Shown here in pieces: positions 6,640 to 53,697 of a stretch of 64,000 nt of DNA. Source of the stretch: Tachypleus tridentatus (Eukaryota; Arthropoda; Merostomata; Xiphosura; Limulidae); NCBI RefSeq assembly GCF_004210375.1, contig NC_134831.1, positions 1,922,001-1,986,000 on the forward strand. The letters are read 5' to 3'. A program made the position numbers and the translations under genes. Under the pieces are notes generated by a model. The model made no database searches. It was not told the origin of the DNA and worked only from the letters and a program-made list of their open reading frames with translations. Within the stretch, counting starts at the first letter, position 1; every line of letters begins with the position of its first letter.

Positions 6640-7344
6640 TCACAGGTAGAATATTCGGCACCTGCCCAGTAAAAGTGGTTTTCTTTGGGCACTTTGCCAA
6701 ATGCTAGTTATTTTTCTGCTGATGTCAGAAATATCTGGTATGCAGCAAAATATGGTTTTGTGATTTTTTAATTCGTGGGATATGTTTACTTTTGTTAGTT
6801 GACTTTGCTTTTTGTGTAGGCGTGTGCGTGTGATGTTTTCTACGATTTGTGGAGGAAACTTGTTCATGTTTATGAAGTATTGTTTTATTTTGTTTAATTC
6901 ATCGTTAATTTTATCTGGTGAGCATATCGTGTCGTCTACATATCTGTACCAGTATAGTGGTGGATGTAATGCTGTGTTAATTGCTTGTGTTTCAACTTGT
7001 GCCATAAAAATGTTTGCTAGAACTGGTGATACTGGGTTGGACTTGCTAAGGCCATTTGTTTGTTTATAGTTGTGGTTGTTGAACATAAAGTTTGTCTTCA
7101 TCGTAATGAATTCTATGAGGGTTGGTAATTGGTTGCTGGGAATGTCTATTGATGGGTTAGGGTCTCGGATATAGAGTTCTAAGGTTATCTTGCAGGCTTC
7201 AGGGGTTGAGACTTCTGTAAAGCAAGATATAACATCAAAACTAGCCATTAAGGCTTTATGATTAAGTTGATTAAGATTAGACTTGAAATTAAAAGAGTCT
7301 TGGATGAATGAAATGGTGATGTTACACATGTGGAGAATGACCAT
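6640..7344 (-). mobile_element. Penelope-like element reverse transcriptase fragment
   Basis: A 234-codon open frame encodes the central RT of a Penelope-like retroelement. Visible motifs are ASFDVISCFTEVSTPEAC (RT motif A, carrying the first aspartate), a KQTNGLSKSNPVSPVLANIF segment (motif B; family form QTDGV.MGSPLSPVLAN), and YRYVDDTI (motif C, catalytic DD). The downstream PDISDISRKI resembles the thumb motif of the family. No GIY-YIG domain follows on this strand, so both ends are missing. The frame as supplied opens at a non-ATG codon inside the domain. Two Penelope-like C-terminal tails occur near 45-46 kb and may be the same family. Confidence 0.85.
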
Positions 7345-7519
7345 GCTACATATATAGGAAAGAATGGGTGGTTGGTGGAGTGTCTAAAGAAACAGGTACA
7401 CACTTACAGGGCAGTATTGAATGAGAATAGCAGGTCAAAACAGATAAGTGGTGCACCTGAATTAGTTCATGGTGTTATAACTTCAGACACCACAAGCAAT
7501 GTAAAAAAATATATTTTTT

Positions 7520-29717: not shown

Positions 29718-32700
29718 TCATCGAGTCATTATCCTGGCAAGGGATGGCAACACCTCAGCTTGTAAAGGAACACAGTCGACAACCTCTCCGTCAACTGTCA
29801 TGTAACCTTCTGTAGAAAATGGTTCCAGTCGAAATGCACGAACAGGTATCATAGTTACATATGGAATATCCACATGTTTACCATTTTGTAGTGAAAGCAA
29901 GAAGTTTATCACTTGAACTCTGGAAACACCTGCCTGGATAATGACTAACCACATCAACCCATCATCTAACTTGGCATTTGGGGCAAAGAACACGTCAGTA
30001 CCAAGATGAGTTTGATGAGAAGCATACACCATAATGAAGTCCCCTTCAACAACAACCCAGTTAGATGGCAAAGGTTGGTTAATTGGTGGCAGCAGTGAAC
30101 TTTGAGCTGCATCACTACACGTTTTTTCAGAAGAATTTGGAATGTCATAAGATTCACCATTTACAGTTACAGCAGACAGTTGAAGAACGTCATTCCAACT
30201 AGCTGTTTGTCCAGAGCTTGTTTCAATTTGCTCAGAACATGCTCCAGCAGGATGTACATCACTTTGGTGGGTCACCGTTACCTCATCACCCAAAAAATAT
30301 GTCCTTTCTGGTTCTACCATAAAATCTGATGATGAATTTGAATTTTCTAGTGAAGAAGAGTCAGAAATCTTTTTATTCGTAAACAGTTTACTTACACTTT
30401 CTTTACTTGTCTCTTCTTCGAAGGTGAAATTCAAACTTTTTGACCTCACCAACTGTTGGATTTTTTTTTTAATTGAATCTTTTCTTTCTTCATGAGAAGT
30501 TGTTACGTATTCACTGCCTCCAGAAGTAGAACTTCTCTTCATCCTGTGCTGAGATGTCAGTTGTTTCACTGCATTTGGCAAATAACCATCAAGAGGTAGA
30601 TAGGAAAGCCTTCCACTGTACTTTCTCAAACCTGCCAGAAGATAGAAAATATTTGCTAGATCTTTTACATATGCATTAAAAAACTATACATCTAACTGTT
30701 TAGAACACTATTAAAACTGCTCTGGAATAAAAACCAACAGAATCTATTTCATTATGCCACAATTTATAAACATATATAATGAAATAAACAGCTTCAAAAC
30801 TATTATTTACATTAATTGTTAATAGGCAATTAAAAAACAATGATCTTATTATAAAAATAAACATTAAAAAGTTCTCTGCAAAATCAATTTTAAATCACAT
30901 TTGTCATCTTAAAGTCATAATATATATTGTCTGCAGCAGTAGCTCCAAAATGCATTGGAGATATCCCATTTACCAGAAAGGCTGATGTTAAAACTAGCTG
31001 ATAATCAAGGAAAATCAATTAAGAGTATGGAGTTCAGTGCTTACACCCACAATGTCTCAACTGCTACTGGCTTTCACTGTCTGCAGCCAGTCGTGGATAG
31101 AAAAAGACAGTTACCCCTAAAAGCTGTTCTAATTCTCATAGTAAAACAAAATGAAACCACCCTAAAATATCTACTACATGTTATATGTCACTACCAACCT
31201 CTGCCCATTACAAATGAAATGAAATAATAAAAGATCTTAAACAGAACTAGAAACTTCACCTTAATATTTCTTATGTAGTTCATACTCCCAACCTCTTCCC
31301 TTTCTTTTGAAAATTTATTCAAGTATAACATGGGAATACTCAGATAAGCCCAACTCCTTGAAGATAATCTTTCCATCTCAGTTGTACTGAAAAATTTGAA
31401 TTTTATAAACTTATAGGTATTCAATCTAGTGACACAAAAGGTATATTTATTATCAAGAATTTACGTGTAAAAATATTTTCATATTTATTATACAGCAGCA
31501 TGAAAATTTTGTTTTATTCATTATGACTAAGAAATTTAAAATGAATTTTGCAAAGGCCTTCTTAGTGTCTATGTTTTTAACATATACAACACACACACAC
31601 ACAGATCAGAGGTACTTCTACCTATATATAGATACACACATAGTAGGGTCAGATTTATCTACAGTACAATATAAAAACAGAAAAAATATATTTGTTTTAA
31701 CATAAAAAGCTGTAATCCAGGATTACAATATGCATGCAACAACAGAAACTAAAATTTTTTTTTAGAAACGTTTATACAAACAAGGAAAAAAAAATGTTGA
31801 AAAGTTTTATAAGAGAACTGCACGTCTAATAAATTCTTATTGAGTGTTTTGGTTTAATAACTTGTAATGAACAACCTAAACAATGAAAAATGGACTTACC
31901 AATAGACCTAACAATAGCCCATAAACCAAACCTAGCCTCTCCTATTGCTCGCAACTTTTCAGACTCAATGTCAATATCAGCCATAATACCCCAACCAATA
32001 GAAAGAAAGGAATACAATGTTTCTTTTGCTGTGGACACACGGACCAAATCCATTGGAGACACCCTTCCATGAATTAAATTCAATACACTTGAGATGACTG
32101 TTTTTCTACCATATGGCTCCCTATGGAAATTTAAAAACTTTTTACCAAAAAATTTTAATATTCATGTATTCATTCAAGAAGTAACCAACTTTTCAGTTGT
32201 ATACAAAATGTTTCATATAATCAGTAGTTTATTTTTGCGAGTGTCAAGAGTTCTAGTACTTAAGAATATTTGACACTTCTTTAAAGTGCTGGCCTTATCA
32301 CTCTTGATGGCAACTCATTTCCTATCACAGCATTACCTAGTTAGAAATATAAATTACAAATGAAATGAAAGTCTCATATTTGTGTCCTCTTATTATCTTC
32401 AGAATGTAGTGCAAAGAAATCAGAAGCCTTTATTCTTTCAGTATCCTTGAGAATATTGTAAATTTCTATAAAATTACCATTTATCCTTTTTTTTTTTTTT
32501 TTAGAAGAGATAATATGTTAAGAGACACTATCCTACCCCTGTAAGGAAATCCTTTCATTCCTAGAATCATCCAAAGTAGCACTTCTATAAATTCTTATTA
32601 GAGAATATCATTTCTTTGGTACAACCAAAACTGTACACAGCATTCCAAGTCAGGCCTAACTAATGATTTACATAGATATAATTACTTCTTTTGACTTGTA

Positions 32701-41700: not shown

Positions 41701-44655
41701 ACAATACATATATTTCTATGTTGTTTACATTGCATGCTAACCCTAACATAAAAGTTGTAATGTAATTAGTTTTAGTAATTTCAATCCAGAGTTTACTAGA
41801 ACAGTAATTTTGTGTTGAGGTCCAGTTGAACCTGAGGTGTTGCAAAAAGTAAGGGCTGATGAGGGTTAATATAGAAATCTTATTGAGAGAAAAAAACAAA
41901 CAAAAAGGTATGTACTCCTACTAGCACAGGAATAAACTGCTAATACATGTCACAAAATAATTTGAATATCTAATGGCCTGATAATGTTTTTGAATGGTTG
42001 ACAATAATAATGGCCAGTACACATGAAACCGAAGTTACAGATTTTAAATGCAACATGTAGACATGCAGAGCCTAGGGAAAACGAGGTAAGTAACATATGT
42101 ATGTATGTATACAGCATATGTAATTTAAAGAACTTAAAAAGTGAAAACAGACTAAAATATAAAATATGTTAGTCTTGGGAATATATACTTGGCTAGAATG
42201 CGAGAGATACTGTAATAGCCTGAACATTATTGACATCATGAGTTATGCTAGTGAATTTAAAATACACAGACTAAGAAAAATAACTGTACTTTTGAAGTAA
42301 TTTGGCAAAACACAGTAGCCCTGATATAACATTAAAGCCACTGGGAGTTCCAAAAAGTAACATTTCAGAGCACTAAATACAAACACACTCCTTCACCAGC
42401 ACAAGTTTGTTTTAAAAATGGGCAAACATTTATGAAAACAAATAATTTCACATTAAAGTAACAATGTAACAAAAAAAAATTCAGGTAGTGCAGCAAGGAT
42501 TTAAACAAAATTTAAGCCTTAGATCAATCAAGGTTGTATTAGAGATACATTAACACAATGTTTGAAACTGTCCTAGTTACATTCATTTAGGGAAAAAACA
42601 ACAACAACTGATTACAGTCTAGTGAACACAACAATTCCTAGCAGTTTATTAAACATTTTTCTAACCTATATGTACAAGATTGTTTGTGGGTTCATAACTT
42701 TGCTGGTTACAGGTTACCTAATAATTTAAAATACACACATGAAATTAATACTGTAATTAACCCCAGTTAAAAATACTGCTTAAGTCTTCTTTCTATTGTA
42801 CATAACAAATAAATTATTTAAATTTTTTAGCTTATCCTAGAACTAGGAAATAAAATTCATTAACTATAAGCATCAATTATACCAATTAGTGCCACATAAA
42901 ATAATCAATAAATTGATAATAAACAACAATTTTCAATATTATTATCCTTTTTGATGATTTGAAACTATCCAGTAATCAAAATTTTGCCATTATTGTTTTC
43001 ATCAAATTCAGACTTTTTCAGCTGAATCAATTAGTGTCATGACTGTCAAAAATATTAAACTAATCAAACTTAGAGTTTCAGATTATTATTATTCCAACTA
43101 TTCAAGTAATCAAAATATTGACATTATGTTTGTTTGCTATTAAGCACAAAGCTATCTGTATTCTGCCCATCACATTTATTTAAACCCAATTTTTAGTGTT
43201 ATAATTTCTGTTTTTATCCATATGATGAGAAAATTTAATTAAAAGGCCTGTTGAGTAATTAATTAGCAAAATTATACTTACTGCTGGCTCCAGTGACATA
43301 ACAGCCTAAACCAAAAATATTTATTTGAAGACAATACGACTTTATACGTAAGACTCCTTAAATCCAAGAGGACACATTCAGTATCTGATTGAAAATATCA
43401 ATTTACCTGTCAGGCAGTATGAGCATAGGATAACACTTATGTGCCTTTGGCTGAAAACTAATCCATGTTATTATCCTCCCTTTACAAATACACCAGAAAT
43501 TTGATAAGGTATGGTAGTAATTTTTAGGACATCAAGAAAATAAGCCAGCAGAATGTGCAAAAATTATGAGTTTAGAAAGAGGTAATTTGTAAAATGTAGA
43601 AAGAATAATTCTCCTCACCTGTAACAACAAGCTTGTATTTAATATCACTCTCAGCTAGAACAGGGACAACACGCTCTCTAAAAACTTCCAGAGCTTTTCC
43701 TGGCCCACTTCTTGGATTAACAAAAATTAACAGATTTCTCTGAGGAGGCAGTTCTTGGATACCTTAAAAAAAAAAGTTTATATATGTAGTTGAAGTGTTA
43801 CATTTGATTTTGAAAATTTTATTTAATGGATTAGGGGGCCCTTTGAAATCAAATGGTTTTCTGACATATTTTAATGCAGCTTAAATAGTTTAAAAATAAA
43901 ACAGATGACATCCTAGCTTATGTTTGCATTCTATTTGCCATTACATTAATAATGTTATTCTTACTAAAGGGTCAAAAATGATAAATAACACTAGTTCATA
44001 TGAAGTCTGAGCCACAGTTACATCTTATGATGGTAATAAGATTTTCAACTATGTTATAAATTAAATCTCTTTTGCAATTAGTTTATTTGAAATTTCTCTG
44101 CAGTTTTTGATTATCTCAAGGACACGTTTTGAAATTGCGTTATTGTGAGACTAAACATCGTGAATGCTTACACGTGCAACAGTACAAGTGCTCACCTTGA
44201 AGATAAACAGTTTCACCAGATTTCAGTAACAACAACAGAGCTTTCTGCCATCTTTTAGCAACGTTCACATTTTCTTCCTCTTGTTGATGTTTTTTTATTT
44301 CCAAAGTGATAGTTTCCCGCACTCGCTGTAACTGCTTTTGAAGTTTACCCCTTAAACGTAAAGGATAACAATACAAACATAGATATATTGAACGATCTAA
44401 CGAATCAGCATCTTTTAGAGTTGTTTTTTTTTCTTTCATTATATGGCACCCCACTACGTCACTTATTTTGATGACAGTTTCTTCATAGCGATTATTTTTT
44501 GTAGGTGAAGGATGTACCAAAATGATATTCTTTTGAGTCAGTTTAACGTTGACGACACATTTCGTATTATGCAATACGAACATGTCTTCTAATAAAGCAG
44601 ACGTTGATGGCATTGGTGAGCAAGAAGAAACATATTCGCTTTCCAAACCTTCCAT
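29718..44655 (-). CDS. SPHK: Sphingosine kinase, six coding exons
   Basis: The protein phosphorylates sphingosine with ATP to sphingosine-1-phosphate in the cytosol and at membranes. Coding exons run 44655-44196, 43762-43619, 34304-34210, 33322-33207, 32120-31900 and 30631-29718. All introns are GT-AG, and the sum of 1950 nt keeps frame (649 residues). Motifs in order: ATP-site NPRSGPGKAL (~170), LVVTDR (~200), SGDGLLYEVFNG (~224), PGGSGNGLA (~257), GWGIMADIDIESEKLRAIGE (~310, with the substrate-contacting aspartates), DDGLMWLVIIQAGVSR (~568) and the C-terminal VDGEVV (~625). A Ser/Thr-rich, low-complexity insertion fills ~372-530, as in SPHK2-type kinases; vertebrate SPHK1 is much shorter. 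The start is the first in-frame ATG; the frame extends upstream only with non-ATG codons. Intron 2 is ~9.3 kb and holds repeats. No frame break is seen, so the gene looks functional. Confidence 0.95.
31900..32120 (-). CDS. SPHK: Sphingosine kinase exon 5 (catalytic-domain core)
   Basis: Listed separately because its acceptor is easy to misplace. The upstream open frame begins inside the exon, but the acceptor TTTCCATAG at 32121-32129 lets the split glycine codon continue as EPYGRKTVISSVLNL. It then encodes HGRVSPMDLVRV and GWGIMADIDIESEKLRAIGE. An alternative acceptor at CAG (about 32096) would break the frame. The donor is GTAAGT at 31899. Confidence 0.9.
32280..32720 (-). mobile_element. 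CR1-like LINE 3' fragment in intron 4-5 boundary region
   Basis: The minus-strand text shows LKGFPY-like and SLNILSL segments and a following ILKE, which resemble the 'L.GLPYEERL..L.L.SLE.RR' region at the end of CR1/Jockey RT proteins (compare 37600-37700). It lies just upstream of exon 5, within intron 4. No open frame remains. A T-run at 32490-32504 interrupts it. Confidence 0.6.
33368..33665. repeat. Degenerate ~60-bp tandem array in kinase intron 3
   Basis: About five units start with a phrase like AGAAATGCAAATCTGAGTCA (33430), AGAAATGTAAGTCTGAGTTC (33605), or GAGAAATGAAAGACTGAGTT (33370), each ending in a TTCATGTG..CACCACATTTA-type phrase. Divergence is high, so this is an old array. 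It starts only ~45 bases upstream of exon 4, and gives rise to the open frames at 33404-33661. Confidence 0.75.
35222..35660. mobile_element. Fold-back element split by a SINE-A
   Basis: Long arms AACACTTTTATTGATAAGCA (35561-35592) and the complement at 35619-35651 surround a centre with TTTCGACCTTCCTTGGTCAT and CTTCAGG. The arm continues to the left of the SINE as CTGGTATGGGTTTTAATACA (35259-35280), matching TTAATACCCATA at 35651. I associate this 'GTTTCGACC...GGTCATCTTCAGG' centre with the ends of Penelope-like elements, but no coding part is present. A second fragment of it lies at 36499-36548. Confidence 0.75.
35289..35561 (+). repeat. SINE-A, full length, inside the fold-back
   Basis: The head GGCCCGGCATGGCCAAGTGG with an intact A box and B box GGTTCGAATCCC is followed by a nearly consensus body and an AAACAAACAAAC tail. 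The flanks ACATTTATTG and ACTTTTATTG form the target duplication. Confidence 0.95.
36495..36550 (-). repeat. Fragment of the same fold-back family
   Basis: The minus strand reads GACGGCTGGTATGGATATTA followed by AAACTTTAATTCC, matching GCGGCTGGTATGGGTTTTAA at 35255-35275. It sits in the fourth ~430-bp unit. Confidence 0.7.
36750..37265. other. Intronic AT-rich sequence, nothing recognised
   Basis: This is part of intron 2 of the sphingosine kinase gene. I see no repeat family or exon-like frame. Confidence 0.5.
37270..39110 (-). mobile_element. CR1-like LINE, RT to 3' end, decayed
   Basis: The minus strand gives SPELGEKKQEILKNNKIPG-like and PPRVLKEVKTG (38570), MYLDFQKAFGKVS (38400; motif A), VTSGAPQDSVLG-type text (38200-38240), KFVDDI (38130; motif C), then PHLEYC.QVWSPYL-type (37770), PRI.GFSYEERLK (37680) and SSKVV.AVNL.. 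text (37470). Order and wording match CR1-clade ORF2. A deletion lies between the PPRVLKEV and motif A segments, and stops are frequent. The element sits in intron 2 on the same strand as the gene. Confidence 0.85.
39120..43120. other. Intronic sequence of the kinase gene, mostly unassigned
   Basis: No exon or RNA gene is supported. The phrase GGGGTCCAAATGGATTCCA (40980) recurs nearly unchanged at 41146 (GGGGTCCAAGTGGATTCCA), which hints at an old local duplication. A TATG microsatellite is at 42097-42110. Confidence 0.5.
43125..43215 (-). repeat. SINE-B relic
   Basis: TTAAGCACAAAGCTATCTGT, ATTCTGCCCATCACATTTAT and TTAAACCCAATTTTTAGTGT keep the SINE-B order in reverse, with several deletions. 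It lies in kinase intron 2. Confidence 0.65.
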
Positions 44656-44734
44656 GACAAAATTCAATGAAACTATGTACACCTCACTTACAAAGGGATG
44701 TACTTTGTTAAATAAAAGTTTATTAAACAAATGA

Positions 44735-45175
44735 AAGTATGAAACATAATGTACGCAAAACTCTAATTTCTTTAAAAACAGGACACTACCTTACCAAATC
44801 TCACCTATCTCACTTTCTAACACACATTAACTGTTTCACAACACACGAAACCATGTCGCGTGACTTAAAAAATTGAAACTGTAGGTGGTGCTACCATCAC
44901 ACCGTTATGTAGTGGTTTCTATTTTGTTGTTATTATTTACATTGTTTTCTTCTATTATTTGATCAGCTTTACGTTTATTTTCCTTATACGTCATCTCACT
45001 TGCCTTCTAATATTTATTATTAAACATTACACAGGCAATTTTTATATTAAAGAAAACATCATAAGATCACCTAGCGGTAAGTTCATTTAATTAATTAGTT
45101 GCTTGTGCACACGCAATTGGCTGTTTATACTCAAAATCGAAATGTGAAGTAACTAGTCATGTATAAGAACAAATA
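44735..45175. other. Upstream region of the kinase gene
   Basis: This would hold the kinase 5'UTR start and promoter. I see no TATA box at a convincing distance and no clear initiator, so the transcription start is not placed. Confidence 0.4.
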
Positions 45176-45823: not shown

Positions 45824-46230
45824 TTAATATAGGTATAAAGGTGTTCCTTTGTATTGGTTTATTCTTGGTTTAAGTTGTATAAGTAAGGCTTCTTTAATTT
45901 TGCGTTTGTTTATGTTTGTTTCTTTATTTAGTATTTGAGTGTTTTCTATGGTTATGTTGTGTTTATTTGACTTCCAGTGTTCGAAAACGTGTGAAGGTGA
46001 CTTTTTATGTTCTTTGAATCTGGTTTCCATTTTTCTACTTGTTTCTCCAATATAGAAGTCGTAGCAGTTATCACAATGTATTTTATAAATAATGTCGGTG
46101 TGATGTTTGTCAGTGTAGTTTTTACACAGTATAGACCTCAGTTTTATGCCTGGTTTTTGAATGAATTTGGTATTAACTGGAATGTCATATTTTATTACTA
46201 GTTTTTGCCAAATGACAAAGTGGCCAAATA
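45824..46230 (-). mobile_element. Penelope-like element GIY-YIG tail, first copy
   Basis: The last ~130 residues of a 334-codon open frame give KLVIKYDIPVNTKFIQKPGI, then IYKIHCDNCYDFYIGETSRK, METRFKEHKKSPSHVFEHW and KRKIKEALLIQLKPRIN. This is a complete-looking GIY-YIG endonuclease module of a Penelope-like element, including the Y..IY..G core, the arginine/EH helix and the KEALLI glutamate. The RT is missing; instead the frame is joined upstream to an unrelated protein (next entry). Confidence 0.85.
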
Positions 46231-46978
46231 GACACCACTCTTGCGGGTCATGGTCACAACCCAAAGCAGAGAACAATCCTTCGATGCCAACACAGAAACA
46301 GAGACTGTCAACTTGTGCAAAGAATTTGGTTATATTATCTTGGCGGCTTCGAAAAACAGAAATTTTCGTACCTGGTGACAGCAAACACCATTCCTGCAGT
46401 CTCGAACCCAGCAATTCGGCTTTTATTTTTGACAGATTCAAATCTTTGACCAGATGGTTTAATTCTGACTGTGTTATGAGATGTGGATCGCCTGAGAAGC
46501 ACGGTTCAAAATCCGGATCATTGTTACTGCCAGTTTCCTGCATTGCCGTTTCTTCATCTAAGGTCCATTCCTCTGGTGGTTTCGGAATTGGAATACTGTC
46601 GTCATGTGACACGAGTCTCATTGCTGAAGGCAGATTAGGGTATTCAATTGACTTCTTGTTTTTGTCAGGGAAACCAGACACATTAGTCAAACAGAAGTAA
46701 CAGTCCGTCACATGGTATTCTGTTCTCGCCGTATTATCGGGACAGCAAACGGCATTATCTTTCGAGTGCGTCTGAGCCAAGCTCTCAGACAGACAGCACA
46801 TGTCGCACAACAAATGTGAGGCGCTCATTCCTGGTCTTGATCACCAATTTTACAGCCAAAATACAGATGATATGCTTTCTTCATAAGAGCAGTCACTGAG
46901 AGTCTCTGATGAACAAGCTTATACTCGCCACAAATATAGCAGAATGTATCATAGCTGTTACGACATTGACGAGACATA
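46231..46978 (-). pseudogene. N-terminal half of the multicopy arthropod protein family
   Basis: The frame starts at the ATG 46978-46976 with MSRQCRNSYDTFCYICGE and KKAYHLYFGCKIGDQDQE, then HICCATC. After a frame change it continues as DCYFCLTNVSGFPDKNKKS, YPNLPSAMRLV, PIPKPPEEWTLDEE, LITQSELNHLVKDLNLSK, AELLGSRLQEW and FSALGCDHDPQEWCLF. Paired cysteines (CYICG, CCATC, CYFC) suggest metal binding. I recognise it as the front of the family whose back half is at 12.34-13.27 kb. The copy has a stop and a frameshift in its first 60 codons, and stops matching where the Penelope-like tail begins. Confidence 0.75.
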
Positions 46979-49124: not shown

Positions 49125-49130
49125 TTTAAT
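49125..49130 (-). terminator. Possible polyadenylation signal (ATTAAA)
   Basis: ATTAAA on the minus strand lies 81 bases beyond the stop codon of the cysteine-rich gene (TGA at 49213-49211). It is the common variant signal. The choice is inferred from distance only. Confidence 0.45.
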
Positions 49131-49210
49131 TATTCTACTGTACTTTTCAACAATATCGTTTTAAATTATTTTTCGCGACATTTGCTCGAAGACAAACTAA
49201 ATGTTGGTTT

Positions 49211-49442
49211 TCAACAATTTAATAATGAACAAGTTTCATGACTCGGGTTGTATTTGCAGTTGACGGCACAAAGATACTTTCTGGCACAGTTGCCTCCTCT
49301 TCTTCCGTATCTGTTAGCTCTTCTGTTAGTTTCTCCCCGCAAGGACTGCCAGCAATCGCTGATCGCTACCGCAGTTTGTCTGGACCTCAGATTCTGATCA
49401 CAGTTAAATACAGCGTTGTAGTTGCCCTGACAGTGAAAATAC
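49211..49442 (-). CDS. Last exon of the cysteine-rich gene (no internal ATG)
   Basis: Listed alone because it carries most of the evidence. It is 231 coding bases on one open frame with eight cysteines (HCQGNYNAVFNC, AISDCWQ, GGNCARKYLCAVNC, ETCSLLNC), richer in G+C than the flanks. A random AT-rich frame would not be expected to keep this composition. The exon begins one base after AG at 49443-49444 and completes the glutamate codon split by the intron. Confidence 0.7.
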
Positions 49443-52400
49443 CTTAGACAAAAAAAAAATAAAAAATAAAATTACACAAGTTGAGAGAGATTATAGTGTG
49501 TACTTTAGTATGTTATATTAAAACGATTTCGAAACCTCGTCACGTCATTGCAGTGGATATTGCGACATGCAGTTATGCTCTTGGTAACAATCGTGAACCT
49601 TGACAATACCTACACAATTTAGTTTTTGTTGCGACAGGTCTCGACGCAAGTTTGTCATGTTCAAGGCACAGCTTTCCTTTCCTAAGCTTTCCATAATCTA
49701 TCAAGTATTCGAGGGTGAGGATTTTATAGCTCCCGTTTCAACTGTCCAGTTGCCCTGAAATCAGAAGATACTGCATCTGGTGACTTGAAAAACATGCCTG
49801 TCTGTAGAGTAGCATTAATACATACTTAATTTTCTATGTATCTGAGGTATACGACGCTTGTATATGAGGCACGACTGGAAGTCTTAACTTGGGAAACTCG
49901 TACCTGCTGGTCTCGTTTTTAGACAAAGATCCTTCTTGATTATATTGCTTACTTTTGTCTGTGGCATGGTTTTGGCTTTTTTGTTGACTTTTGTGTTGGT
50001 ATATTCTCTCATGTTAGAAGACAAGGGTCTTTGCATATGACAGCTAGTGTACGACTTCTTGCAAGTCTTGTTCTGTATGGTCTTGATACTTCAAATTGAT
50101 CTATATTTCTTTGTTTCTCAATATCATTAAGTATAAAGGATATTCCTGTCTTGAAAATTCTAAATCGTCAATGGAGTGCATCTATATTATCTGAGTGTAT
50201 AAAGATTTTGCGCTGGAAAAAGCTGTCACAACCCTTTCAAAAAGTGATTAGTTTTCAGTATCATTATACTACCTTCTAAACATCAAACAATGTCAATATG
50301 AAGGTCTGATATATGTATTAAGCTGCGACTTTTATATTGGTTGTAGTTATCACACGATTGATTGATTATTATTTTCAAAATCATTTTAATACAATGTATT
50401 AGGTCTTCCATACAAGCGGTTCTTTTATGTATAAAACACACAGTTTCACCCATTATTCTTGGGGTTTAGTACAATATTATTTCCTAAAAATGGGTTTGTT
50501 TGATCTTTTACTTGATGACATCTGACACAAAATGATGACCTCTGTATGTGAATCCATACATCAACTTTTTTTCACAACGCCATTAAGGTTATTTCCATAA
50601 TAATTATACTCATAATTTAAATTGTAATATCCAACATCCATTACTTTTCATTTATTGTAATTAATGTTAAGTAATTGGAGCTGGGAGTTGAAATGACGAT
50701 GTCATTTTTAAGTCAATGAATGACAGTTAAATTGTATATTTATATTATGAAAATAACATGGCCAATAATACTCACCTAATTCGTAATAATATAATATAAT
50801 GTTTATTAGAAGGACAGTGGAGGTAATTCGTTTGTTAGTTCCAATAATTTCCTATGTGATTATTTTGTTTTCCGATTTAAATTTGTTTTTTTTTGTGCCT
50901 TTAATCAAGAGAACCATTTCTACTTTATGAATATTTTCCTGCGTCGTGGGAATTTATGGGAATTCTTCAGTGTCATGATAGAGAAGTTTGATAGAGAGGT
51001 TTTCTTTATGGATACTTTCCTGTGTCATGGTAGTTTTCTTTATGGATACTTTCCTGTGTCATGGTAGTTTTCTTTATGGATACTTTCCTGTGTCATGGTA
51101 GTTTTCTTTATGGATACTTTCCTGTGTCATGGTAGTTTTCTTTATGGATACTTTCCTGTGTCATGGTAGTTTTCTTTATGGATATTTTCCTGTTTTGTTG
51201 AATCTGTTTTAAGTCTAAAGTTTTTGTTATGTTGGAATATGGTGTTGGTTTGTTGTTGTTTTTATGTGAATTACCTATCTTTTCGATCGTGCGTAAATTT
51301 TTTTTATCTTGTACAAGAACCGTGATGCTATCACTAGCGATGTTTGAGTTGACCGCTATCACTTATCAGTTGTTTAGTATGTTATGGTTAATAATATTTT
51401 TCATGGAGAAACACATTAAAACATTTATTGGTCAAACTCGGGCTACTGTGAAGAGTTGCTAATCAAAATGCCGTAATTAATTTATTTCTTAATATGAATG
51501 CCACAGATATTTTAATATTTCGTTTCTGACTTCCAATATGGCTGCACCAATAAAAGTCAGAGATTATCCACGATCATGAAACTCGTATTAGTTTTACTCT
51601 TTAATTTAGAGAACTTAATATATACAGGGGTCGCCCTAAAACATGTATACACACGTTGAATGATTATAACTCACTCAAACTTTCTTTTTTTTACACATGC
51701 AACTGATTTAAAGTAATGACAAAAGCAAGACTAAGTTTTAAGAAAAGGAAATTTACCTTAAAGTGTTACTGGAAGTGTGAGAACGTAGCTAAAGTGTAAA
51801 GACGGTGTAGAAGGGAGTTTCAAACAGATCCACCAACGCGACTCACCATTACTCGCATCAGAGATAAGTTTGAAACAAATGGAACTGTTCAAGACGTCCA
51901 TAAAGGGCGTTCTGGAAGACCGCGGTCGTACACCAGTCCCACACGAGAAGCAAAGCTGTTGGAAAGTCTCCACCGATCTCCAAGAAAATCTGTTTGGCCA
52001 ACAGCCTATGAGACAGGAATCCCAAAATCGAGCATTGAAGCGCGTTCATTGGAAAAGTTTTATTCCGGCATTAGTCCACGCCCTCAATGAAGATGATCCT
52101 GACCAGATAGTTGAATTTTGTGAGTGGTACCTGGCAAAAGCTGCAGTGGATGTACAGTTTCAAAACAAAATTTCCTACATGTTCACCAGACCTTACACCT
52201 CTGGACTATTTTATTTATGGGGATACGCCAAAGATAAAGTTTATAGCACAAAACCTGCAATAGTCAATGAGCTGAGAGCAGCAATTGAAAGAGAATGCAC
52301 CCAAATACAAAAATGAAATGATTCGTGAAGTTTGTAATTCCACCCGTCCGCATTATCAGCAGTGCCTGGATCAGAACGGTCATCAGTTCGAACACCTGCG

Positions 52401-52858
52401 ATAACTCAAAAGATTCTACATTTGTCTTATTAAAATTCGATTATAAAACCTAGATATATGTTAATAATTATTGTATTTATAATCATTCAAAGTGTATATA
52501 CATTTTTTGGGCCACCCTGTATATATATATATATATGATTCTCTAACATATAGAAAATATGAGGCATAGTTACTAAATACATACTGGAAATCTGAAAATT
52601 AATCAGTAATTTCGACTCATCAACTAAGAGGTTCACTTACTCGTCACAGTTGATACATTTTCTAGTAGTCATTTTGTATAAACTTTTAAACATCTCTTTC
52701 GTAGCGCAGCGAACGTCTTTGTCAAACAAGGTTGAGAAACCCATACTTCTGAAAATACAGCTGTTAAAGGCCATCCATCTTATTTGACAGTCACCGAGAT
52801 CTGTGATTATATACAATACTGACAGCGGAAACAGGAAAGGCATGGCGACGCATTTCAT
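49211..52858 (-). CDS. Secreted cysteine-rich protein, two coding exons, family unknown
   Basis: Coding exons 52858-52638 and 49442-49211 join in frame to a 149-residue protein. Exon 2 opens after an acceptor TACATTTCAG (52872-52881) and ends at GACGA|GTAAGTG, an almost consensus donor. The last exon follows TTTTTTTGTCTAAG and has no ATG, so it is only visible by splicing. Residues 1-23 are a signal peptide (MKCVAMPFLFPLSVLYII), followed by DLGDC. The mature part holds 13 cysteines (near 24, 33, 50, 68, 71, 77, 87, 103, 125, 131, 135, 144, 149) and a basic stretch ANRYGRRGGNC (~115-125). The rich cysteine content, the signal peptide and the intact frame suggest an extracellular disulfide-bonded protein, perhaps immune or hormone-like; I cannot name a family. 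The start is the first ATG after the splice acceptor. Confidence 0.72.
49450..50990. other. Intron 2 of the cysteine-rich gene, unassigned part
   Basis: No repeat family or extra exon is recognised between the last exon and the 34-bp array. Confidence 0.45.
51000..51197. repeat. 34-bp minisatellite, 5.8 copies
   Basis: TTTTCTTTATGGATACTTTC plus CTGTGTCATGGTAG repeats at an exact 34-base period from 51000. Five units are identical, and the last is truncated and diverged (GGATATTTTCCTG). It lies in intron 2 of the cysteine-rich gene. Confidence 0.97.
51625..52519 (+). mobile_element. Mariner-like element, internally deleted
   Basis: Inverted repeats CAGGGGTCGCCCTAAAACAT (51625) and, on the other strand, CAGGGTGGCCCAAAAAATGT (ending at 52519) are each flanked by TA. 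The coding part has the N-terminal DNA-binding region (KCYWKCENVA, DPPTRVTITRIRDKFETNGT, GRSGRPRS, RKSV..TAYETGIPKSS), then DPDQIVEFCEWYLAKAAVD, then jumps to SPDLTPLDYF and WGYAKDKVY, then NELRAAIERE and CLDQNGHQFEHLR. The catalytic core between these is deleted, so this copy has no transposase of its own. It sits in intron 2 of the cysteine-rich gene, on the opposite strand. Confidence 0.9.
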
Positions 52859-52870
52859 AGTGACAGGTTT

Positions 52871-53602
52871 CTGAAATGTACAAAATAGTTAAATAATTTT
52901 ATTTTGTAATATTAGATATTGTTATCAAAATATTCTCAAATCCAATGCTACGAAGTGGGCTATCTGAGTGGCGCCCAATGTGTGTAGAGAACCACAATTT
53001 TTACTGTCATTTTTACTATCGTAAGCCCAAACACCTACCGCTGAACCACAAGGGTGGAGGGTGGATATTTGAGATTATTATTATAGATAATTATTAATCA
53101 GGGATTTTGAAACAAACATTTGTAAGAATCATTCCTAAATTATAAATAGTCATATGTACTAATTACTCTCGTTATTTTACTCTACCACTGCACGTTTTTA
53201 TTTATTTTCTATTTACTTTTTCGACGGTTTCCAACACTCAATGAATAATAAAAAAGTTGAAACACAGAACCCATGAGATTCCAAAACCAGAAATACGTCA
53301 TATACAATTCATTTTTAAAAGCCAGTCTTAGTTTCAGACCTAATCGAATAGTTTCTACTTTAATGCCTATTAACAACCACCGTGACTCAGCTATAAGTCT
53401 GAGGACTTGTAATGCTAGTAACTTGATTTTGATACTCGCGATTGGCAGACCAATAATAACACATTTGTAGTTTACGCTTCACAACAAAGAAACAATGCCA
53501 ATTAAACTATATTTAATATTGTGCATCTTTATGCACTTATTTCTTAAGATTAACATGACTTAGTTTCCACAGAATTACGAATAATTAAAAATAATAATTT
53601 AC
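52871..53602. other. Intron 1 of the cysteine-rich gene
   Basis: The intron is bounded by the donor AAG|GTAAATT at 53602 and the acceptor TTTCAG at 52872. Its only recognisable content is the possible SINE-B relic at 52947-53060. Confidence 0.55.
52947..53060 (-). repeat. Probable SINE-B relic
   Basis: GAAGTGGGCTATCTGAGTGG, CGCCCAATGTGTG and a head-side ACACCTACCGCTGAACCACA resemble the SINE-B order in reverse. It is heavily diverged. Confidence 0.5.
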
Positions 53603-53664
53603 CTTTTCAATAAAATCAGCAGCGTAAAAAGAATAATGATTATTTTCGCAAGATATCCATGAAA
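53603..53664 (-). other. Putative 5'UTR exon of the cysteine-rich gene
   Basis: The exon runs from ~30 bases below the TATA box to the donor GAAAAG|GTAAATT. It contains a six-codon upstream frame starting ATGGATATCTTGCG and ending TAA, so it does not encode the protein itself. Its 5' border is inferred from the usual TATA-to-start distance. Confidence 0.5.
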
Positions 53665-53690
53665 TGTCAAGATCTCCTTTCAAACGCTCG

Positions 53691-53697
53691 TTATATA
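53691..53697 (-). promoter_or_regulatory. TATA box of the cysteine-rich gene
   Basis: TATATAA on the minus strand, in the context GTCGGTATATAACGAGCG, lies ~90 bases before a good splice donor and within a locally GC-richer segment. This is a textbook spacing for a short first exon. Confirmation would need transcript ends. Confidence 0.55.

What the first reader, a model, noticed from the sequence alone, without database searches (positions are those of the whole stretch)
49125..53697. Hidden gene for a secreted, 13-cysteine protein
Seen: a TATA box, a donor-ended leader exon, an acceptor followed by an ATG and signal peptide, a near-consensus donor, and a last exon with no ATG that joins exactly in frame and carries eight cysteines in 76 codons. 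A gene finder that relies on ATG frames would miss it. I cannot match the cysteine pattern to a family I know; the basic GRRGG-containing loop and secretion suggest an extracellular, possibly immune or signalling role (inference).
Basis: partly seen in the sequence, partly recalled or inferred. Interest (0 to 1): 0.78.

Follow-up and report, generated by a model that had tools for sequence, protein, structure and literature searches.

The report
Cysteine-rich serum amyloid A gene
The "hidden" gene is an ordinary spliced gene, one of four found in what is very probably a horseshoe crab genome, for a secreted relative of serum amyloid A, a blood protein that vertebrates make during infection, here with about twelve conserved cysteines where the classic amyloid A protein has none.

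Summary
The gene is real and its family can be named. Exons 52870-52641 and 49442-49211 (minus strand) splice into a 149-residue protein. It matches serum amyloid A, Pfam PF00277, at E 6.9e-7 and 30.0 bits, 0.8 bits under the curated cut-off. Three paralogues in the same genome score 40.6-61.3 bits, over it; paralogue C finds human SAA1 in the PDB at 1e-10; 0 of 10 shuffles match SAA. Coagulogen in the genome points to a horseshoe crab. Three of the genes form a ~30-kb same-strand cluster. Likely role (inferred): an infection-responsive haemolymph protein stabilised by disulfides. Tick SAAs are already in print (PMC9128142, PMC5627281), so this is a new member of a known kind. Open: whether the cysteine-rich form is chelicerate-wide. 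No expression data were available; the leader exon rests on sequence signals.

The parts
53691..53697 (-). TATA-like box TATATAA
   Evidence: Read directly; no transcript evidence
53603..53665 (-). putative non-coding leader exon (5' end guessed from the TATA box), donor G|GTAAAT
   Evidence: Donor read directly; no similarity to paralogues' upstream DNA; an acceptor just before the ATG in 4 of 4 genes implies a 5'UTR intron
52641..52870 (-). exon 2: 12 nt of 5'UTR, ATG at 52858, signal peptide, N-terminal part with five of the 13 cysteines (Cys24, 34, 51, 68, 71)
   Evidence: Splice signals and frame; homologous exon in three other loci, E 2.8e-19, 1.0e-16, 3.7e-8
49443..52640 (-). intron 2, phase 2, GT-AG, 3.2 kb
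   Evidence: same position and phase in paralogues B, C, D
49211..49442 (-). exon 3: SAA core motif YFHCQGNYNA to the cysteine-rich C-terminal tail, stop TGA
   Evidence: three homologous exons at 62, 62 and 46% identity; SAA profile match
49125..49130 (-). polyadenylation-like signal ATTAAA
   Evidence: Read directly

Best explanation
The gene encodes a serum amyloid A (SAA) of a horseshoe crab, one of four paralogues (A here; B and C just upstream in the same cluster; D on another chromosome). SHOWN: intact spliced frames, homology to SAA over most of its length, conserved cysteines, coding sequence under constraint, tandem cluster. INFERRED: the signal peptide is cut after Cys24; the mature protein of about 125 residues keeps the SAA helical bundle; six disulfides tie the helices to each other and to a basic C-terminal tail of about 25 residues. 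It circulates in haemolymph, responds to infection or injury, and binds microbial surfaces and/or lipophilic or polyanionic ligands as reported for vertebrate SAA (OmpA, retinol, heparan sulfate). Vertebrate SAA forms fibrils only when not held on HDL; disulfides would let the arthropod protein stay folded without a lipoprotein partner. The confidence given is for the identity (a real gene for an SAA); I put the haemolymph-immune role at about 0.6.
For: SAA profile: A 30.0 bits, E 6.9e-7; B 56.9, C 61.3, D 40.6 bits against a cut-off of 30.8; 0 of 10 cysteine-preserving shuffles match SAA, two of them match other families below cut-off. Paralogue C against the PDB: human SAA1 1e-10, SAA3 2.4e-9, with aligned DKYFHxxGNY, AExISDxRE and DSxADQAANxxGRxG blocks. 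Gene A against the PDB: best hits are SAAs but weak, 0.01. Genome-wide, PF00277 finds exon 3 of B, C and D, two over the cut-off. Cysteines conserved 13 of 13 in 4 of 4 genes. dN/dS for A-B: 0.33/1.35 in exon 2, 0.24/1.20 in exon 3. Exon 3 folded alone is mostly helix, mean pLDDT 71.4. Literature passages: SAA in tick haemolymph (PMC9128142, table); tick SAA gene raised by Babesia (PMC5627281); prawn SAA-5-like raised at four of four time points of a virus infection (PMC12018387, abstract and passages); sea-cucumber SAA raised by LPS on Northern blot (PMC2702171).
Against: Gene A itself falls 0.8 bits short of Pfam's cut-off and was not found by the genome-wide PF00277 search; it lacks four residues and most of the ADQAAN motif. 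The part before residue 48 and the tail after residue 125 lie outside the profile match. dN/dS is less strict for A-C in exon 2 (0.43/0.82). A structure search with exon 3 alone gave no PDB match at E <= 0.001. In ticks, knockdown of SAA lowered parasite infection, so there it helps the parasite rather than protecting (PMC5627281); in mussel gills SAA appears with a negative value after bacterial exposure (PMC7772429); the sea-cucumber change was not significant on microarray (PMC2702171). No expression, disulfide or ligand data were available here.
Confidence: 0.9

Rival explanations
1. The gene is SAA by descent but has been recruited to another secreted job (for example antimicrobial, cuticle or egg protein), with the cysteines marking a changed function. 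Compatible with the identity above; a rival to the proposed role.
For: A has the weakest SAA score of the four; calculated charge of the mature chain about +11 for A and +10 for B against +3 for C and +4 for D; N- and C-terminal segments lie outside the SAA domain; SAA-domain proteins of unknown function occur in tick saliva (PMC3244413, section passage).
Against: The YFH/Y..NY core and the cysteines are kept in all four; tick and prawn SAAs respond to infection (PMC5627281, PMC12018387).
Confidence: 0.25
2. Gene A is a decaying or unexpressed copy; B, C and D carry the function.
For: Lowest SAA score, 4-residue gap and altered ADQAAN block.
Against: Open frame and intact splice sites; 13 of 13 cysteines kept; dN below dS in A-B and A-C for both exons and in A-D for exon 3 (ratios about 0.2 to 0.5, dS near saturation; A-D exon 2 not computable).
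Confidence: 0.07
3. Chance: splice signals around unrelated open frames, no gene.
For: 26 of 1,074 downstream AGs also give 70 or more open codons.
Against: Both exons conserved in three other loci with the same intron position; joining raises the SAA score from 16.2 to 30.0 bits.
Confidence: 0.01

Closest known systems
Vertebrate serum amyloid A (SAA1-SAA4; Pfam PF00277)
   Same: Small secreted protein; DKYFHARGNY and DSxADQAANxxGRxG blocks align (paralogue C); genes clustered (human: 160-kb region, PMC6117975 passage).
   Different: 12-13 conserved cysteines against absence of cysteine in the amyloid A protein (PMC6117975 passage); extra N-terminal stretch and a cysteine-rich tail of about 25 residues; one coding intron here, 4 exons/3 introns in human SAA genes (PMC6117975 passage).
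Tick serum amyloid A
   Same: Chelicerate SAA; a Haemaphysalis flava haemolymph entry listed with 152, which I read as its length in aa (PMC9128142, table passage), close to the 149-157 aa here; gene raised by Babesia bigemina, knockdown cut infection by 66 and 86% in two Rhipicephalus species (PMC5627281, passage).
   Different: Sequences could not be obtained here, so shared cysteines are untested.
[quoted passage not shown]
   Same: Arthropod SAA, raised in a virus infection (PMC12018387, abstract and passages).
   Different: One shrimp SAA is listed with amphioxus SAA-5-like as its match at 1.32E-34 (PMC6953826, table passage), which suggests a more canonical sequence than here (inference).

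Membership tests
Serum amyloid A (PF00277) | Significant homology to the SAA domain | tested here: met
   A: E 6.9e-7, 30.0 bits, 0.8 bits under the curated cut-off of 30.8; B, C, D 56.9, 61.3, 40.6 bits, over it; 0 of 10 shuffles match SAA
Serum amyloid A (PF00277) | YFHxxGNYDA core block | tested here: met
   YFHCQGNYNA in A, B and C; YFYCRANYDT in D; aligned to SAA1 YFHARGNYDA
Serum amyloid A (PF00277) | ADQAANxWGRSGK block at helix 4 | tested here: inconclusive
   Clear in B and C (ADQAANRYGRNGG); partial in A (RRANRYGRRGG) and D (VDQETVKYGRNGG)
Serum amyloid A (PF00277) | Signal peptide, secreted | tested here: inconclusive
   Hydrophobic N-terminus in 4 of 4 genes with a (-3,-1)-compatible site after Cys24/27 (judged by eye); no predictor was run
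Serum amyloid A (PF00277) | Four-helix bundle | tested here: inconclusive
Serum amyloid A (PF00277) | Acute-phase induction; lipid, retinol or heparan sulfate binding | not testable with these tools
   No RNA-seq or binding data
Defensin/knottin-type antimicrobial or venom peptide (considered for the cysteine pattern) | Match to a cysteine-knot or defensin profile | tested here: not met
   Pfam scan to E 10 lists only SAA and a weak CBM_14 at E 1.3 (HMMER filters drop most matches above about 0.1)

The most novel reading that the evidence does not exclude
Chelicerates carry a distinct class of SAA in which six conserved disulfides staple the helical bundle and a basic C-terminal tail: an amyloid-resistant, lipoprotein-independent version of vertebrates' main acute-phase protein. 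In horseshoe crabs a gene cluster with exon-3 exchange (B and C 79 of 80 residues identical in exon 3, 47 of 76 in exon 2) diversifies it.
Probability: 0.35. Interest if true: 0.5.

Novelty: new member of a known kind. Interest (0 to 1): 0.33.

Why it matters
SAA is the classic vertebrate acute-phase protein and the precursor of AA amyloid, yet its basic function is still debated (PMC6117975, abstract). A disulfide-rich arthropod SAA would help separate features needed for its ancestral job (the YFH..GNY core, the helix-4 block) from features tied to HDL binding and amyloid formation. Horseshoe crabs are a classic model for endotoxin responses (recalled), so induction by LPS is easy to test.
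Full report
Observation. The described structure is in the sequence with minor coordinate corrections: TATA 53691-53697, leader donor after 53603, exon 2 52870-52641 with ATG at 52858, donor GTAAGT, acceptor TCTAAG, exon 3 coding 49442-49211, ATTAAA 49130-49125 (sequence). The joined frame is 149 residues with 14 cysteines: Cys3, Cys24 and twelve more. As a control, the in-frame join alone is not impressive: 26 of 1,074 AG dinucleotides within 20 kb downstream of the donor give 70 or more open codons.

What makes it real. The window lies in a 2.17-Gb genome (G000:C7:1922001-1986000) that could be searched. Exon 3 and exon 2 each have three homologous loci, with all other hits above E 1 (the tool scores only its best candidates). 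They assemble into three more genes: B (C7:1993593-1986638), C (C7:2000790-1999582) and D (C8:34972720-34978177); the outer ends of C and D come from the tblastn. A, B and C lie on one strand within about 30 kb. All four have the same phase-2 coding intron and give proteins of 149, 156, 156 and 157 residues. Identity of A to B, C and D is 56, 56 and 41%. The 13 cysteines from Cys24 on are kept in 4 of 4 genes. Substitution counts show constraint: dN is below dS in all 11 of the 12 pair-by-exon comparisons for which dS could be computed (A-D exon 2 could not). For gene A: A-B 0.33/1.35 (exon 2) and 0.24/1.20 (exon 3), A-C 0.43/0.82 and 0.23/1.05, A-D exon 3 0.38/1.47. Most dS values are near saturation, so ratios are rough. 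An AG acceptor lies 12, 12, 5 and 16 nt before the ATG of A, B, C and D, which points to a shared 5'UTR intron. The leader exon of A shows no similarity to the other copies, holds a 6-codon ATG frame and remains unproved.

Family. Pfam lists serum amyloid A for A at E 6.9e-7, 30.0 bits, over residues 48-125, just under the curated 30.8. B, C and D score 56.9, 61.3 and 40.6 bits. Exon 3 of A alone scores 16.2 and exon 2 alone nothing, so the splice restores a continuous match. None of ten cysteine-preserving shuffles matches SAA; two match other families below their cut-offs. In the PDB, A's best matches are SAAs but weak (0.01), while C reaches human SAA1 at 1e-10 and SAA3 at 2.4e-9. In that alignment of paralogue C, helix-1 residues pair with SAA1 from D16 on, DKYFHCQGNYNA with DKYFHARGNYDA, ISDC with ISDA, and DSGADQAANRYGRNG with DSLADQAANEWGRSG. 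Cysteines thus stand where SAA1 has Y29, S32, A38 and A61 (mature numbering of human SAA1 is recalled). By position the remaining mature cysteines are one in the N-terminal lead-in (Cys34 of A), one in the helix-1 region (Cys51), one in the helix 2-3 turn (Cys87) and five at or beyond the end of helix 4 (Cys125 to Cys149); helix limits are from PMC6117975 (figure legend passage).

Organism. Coagulogen (PF02035) gives 19 matches, best 100.2 bits. Coagulogen is the horseshoe-crab clotting protein (recalled), so the genome is very probably a horseshoe crab. The species was not determined; the assembly size is near the 2.06 Gbp of Tachypleus tridentatus (PMC7011531, abstract start in the listing).

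How it most likely works (inference). In all four genes the residues before the likely mature start (GDC, GEC, GYC, SYC) fit the -3/-1 rule with Cys at -1, so the mature chain would have 12 cysteines and a calculated pI of 8.3-9.3. Human SAA is a four-helix bundle with a tail wrapped around it; SAA binds HDL, retinol and OmpA of E. coli and can act as an opsonin (PMC6117975, passages). The exon 3 model is mostly helix (mean pLDDT 71.4; the other four models 33-61), which fits the fold without proving it; database searches with this half-domain were uninformative. I propose a disulfide-stabilised, soluble haemolymph SAA that responds to infection and binds microbial or lipid ligands. The identity is near certain; the role is a reasoned guess at about 0.6.

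Known relatives. Tick SAAs are in print: salivary SAA-domain proteins of unknown function (PMC3244413, section passage; PMC4261526, table passage), a haemolymph protein listed with 152, read as its length (PMC9128142, table passage), and a gene raised by Babesia bigemina whose knockdown cut infection by 66 and 86% in two species (PMC5627281, passage; also PMC3712896, passages). That last result means the tick SAA favours the parasite, so a plain protective role does not follow. Prawn SAA-5-like genes rise at four of four time points of a virus infection (PMC12018387, abstract and passages). A sea-cucumber SAA is raised by LPS on Northern blot though not significantly on microarray (PMC2702171, passages). 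SAA was among ten genes checked by qRT-PCR in a prawn WSSV study (PMC12840910, passages). In mussel gills after a bacterial bath SAA is listed at -629.5 in a table of changed genes (PMC7772429, table passage), so invertebrate SAA is not always raised. Whether any of these have the 12 cysteines could not be checked, as I had no such sequences.

Extra finding. B and C share a 1.2-kb block of 91.5% identity around exon 3 (C7:1985727-1986930 and 1998719-1999874). Exon 3 is 79 of 80 residues identical while exon 2 is only 47 of 76: a recent exon-3 exchange between otherwise old duplicates, by gene conversion or partial duplication.

Verdict. Ordinary as a gene and moderately interesting as a cysteine-rich SAA.

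Noticed in passing
C7:1985727-1986930 and C7:1998719-1999874 (L016, L017), just right of the window: 91.5% identical 1.2-kb block around exon 3 of SAA paralogues B and C, while their second exons are old (47 of 76 residues identical): gene conversion or partial duplication of one exon.
   Followed up: partly
29721-30683 (-), perhaps also 44143-44790 (-): Neighbouring gene with a YegS C-terminal kinase domain (57.5 bits; sphingosine-kinase type by recall); the second ORF may be its N-terminal part but has no Pfam match at 0.001.
   Followed up: partly
6643-7383 (-) and 45827-46840 (-): Reverse transcriptase fragment (RVT_1, 35.1 bits) at the first; the second, a 338-aa ORF, looks GIY-YIG-like to the eye but has no Pfam match at 0.001.
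   Followed up: no
51789-52313 (+), inside intron 2 of the SAA gene: Open frame of 175 codons on the other strand with no Pfam match at 0.001; likely remnant of a mobile element (guess).
   Followed up: no
G000 C7 19.2-20.5 Mb, C11 9.0 and 42.9 Mb: Besides the best coagulogen locus (C11, 9.0 Mb), further coagulin-domain matches, several in clusters (19 matches in all), suggest a larger coagulogen-like family.
   Followed up: no
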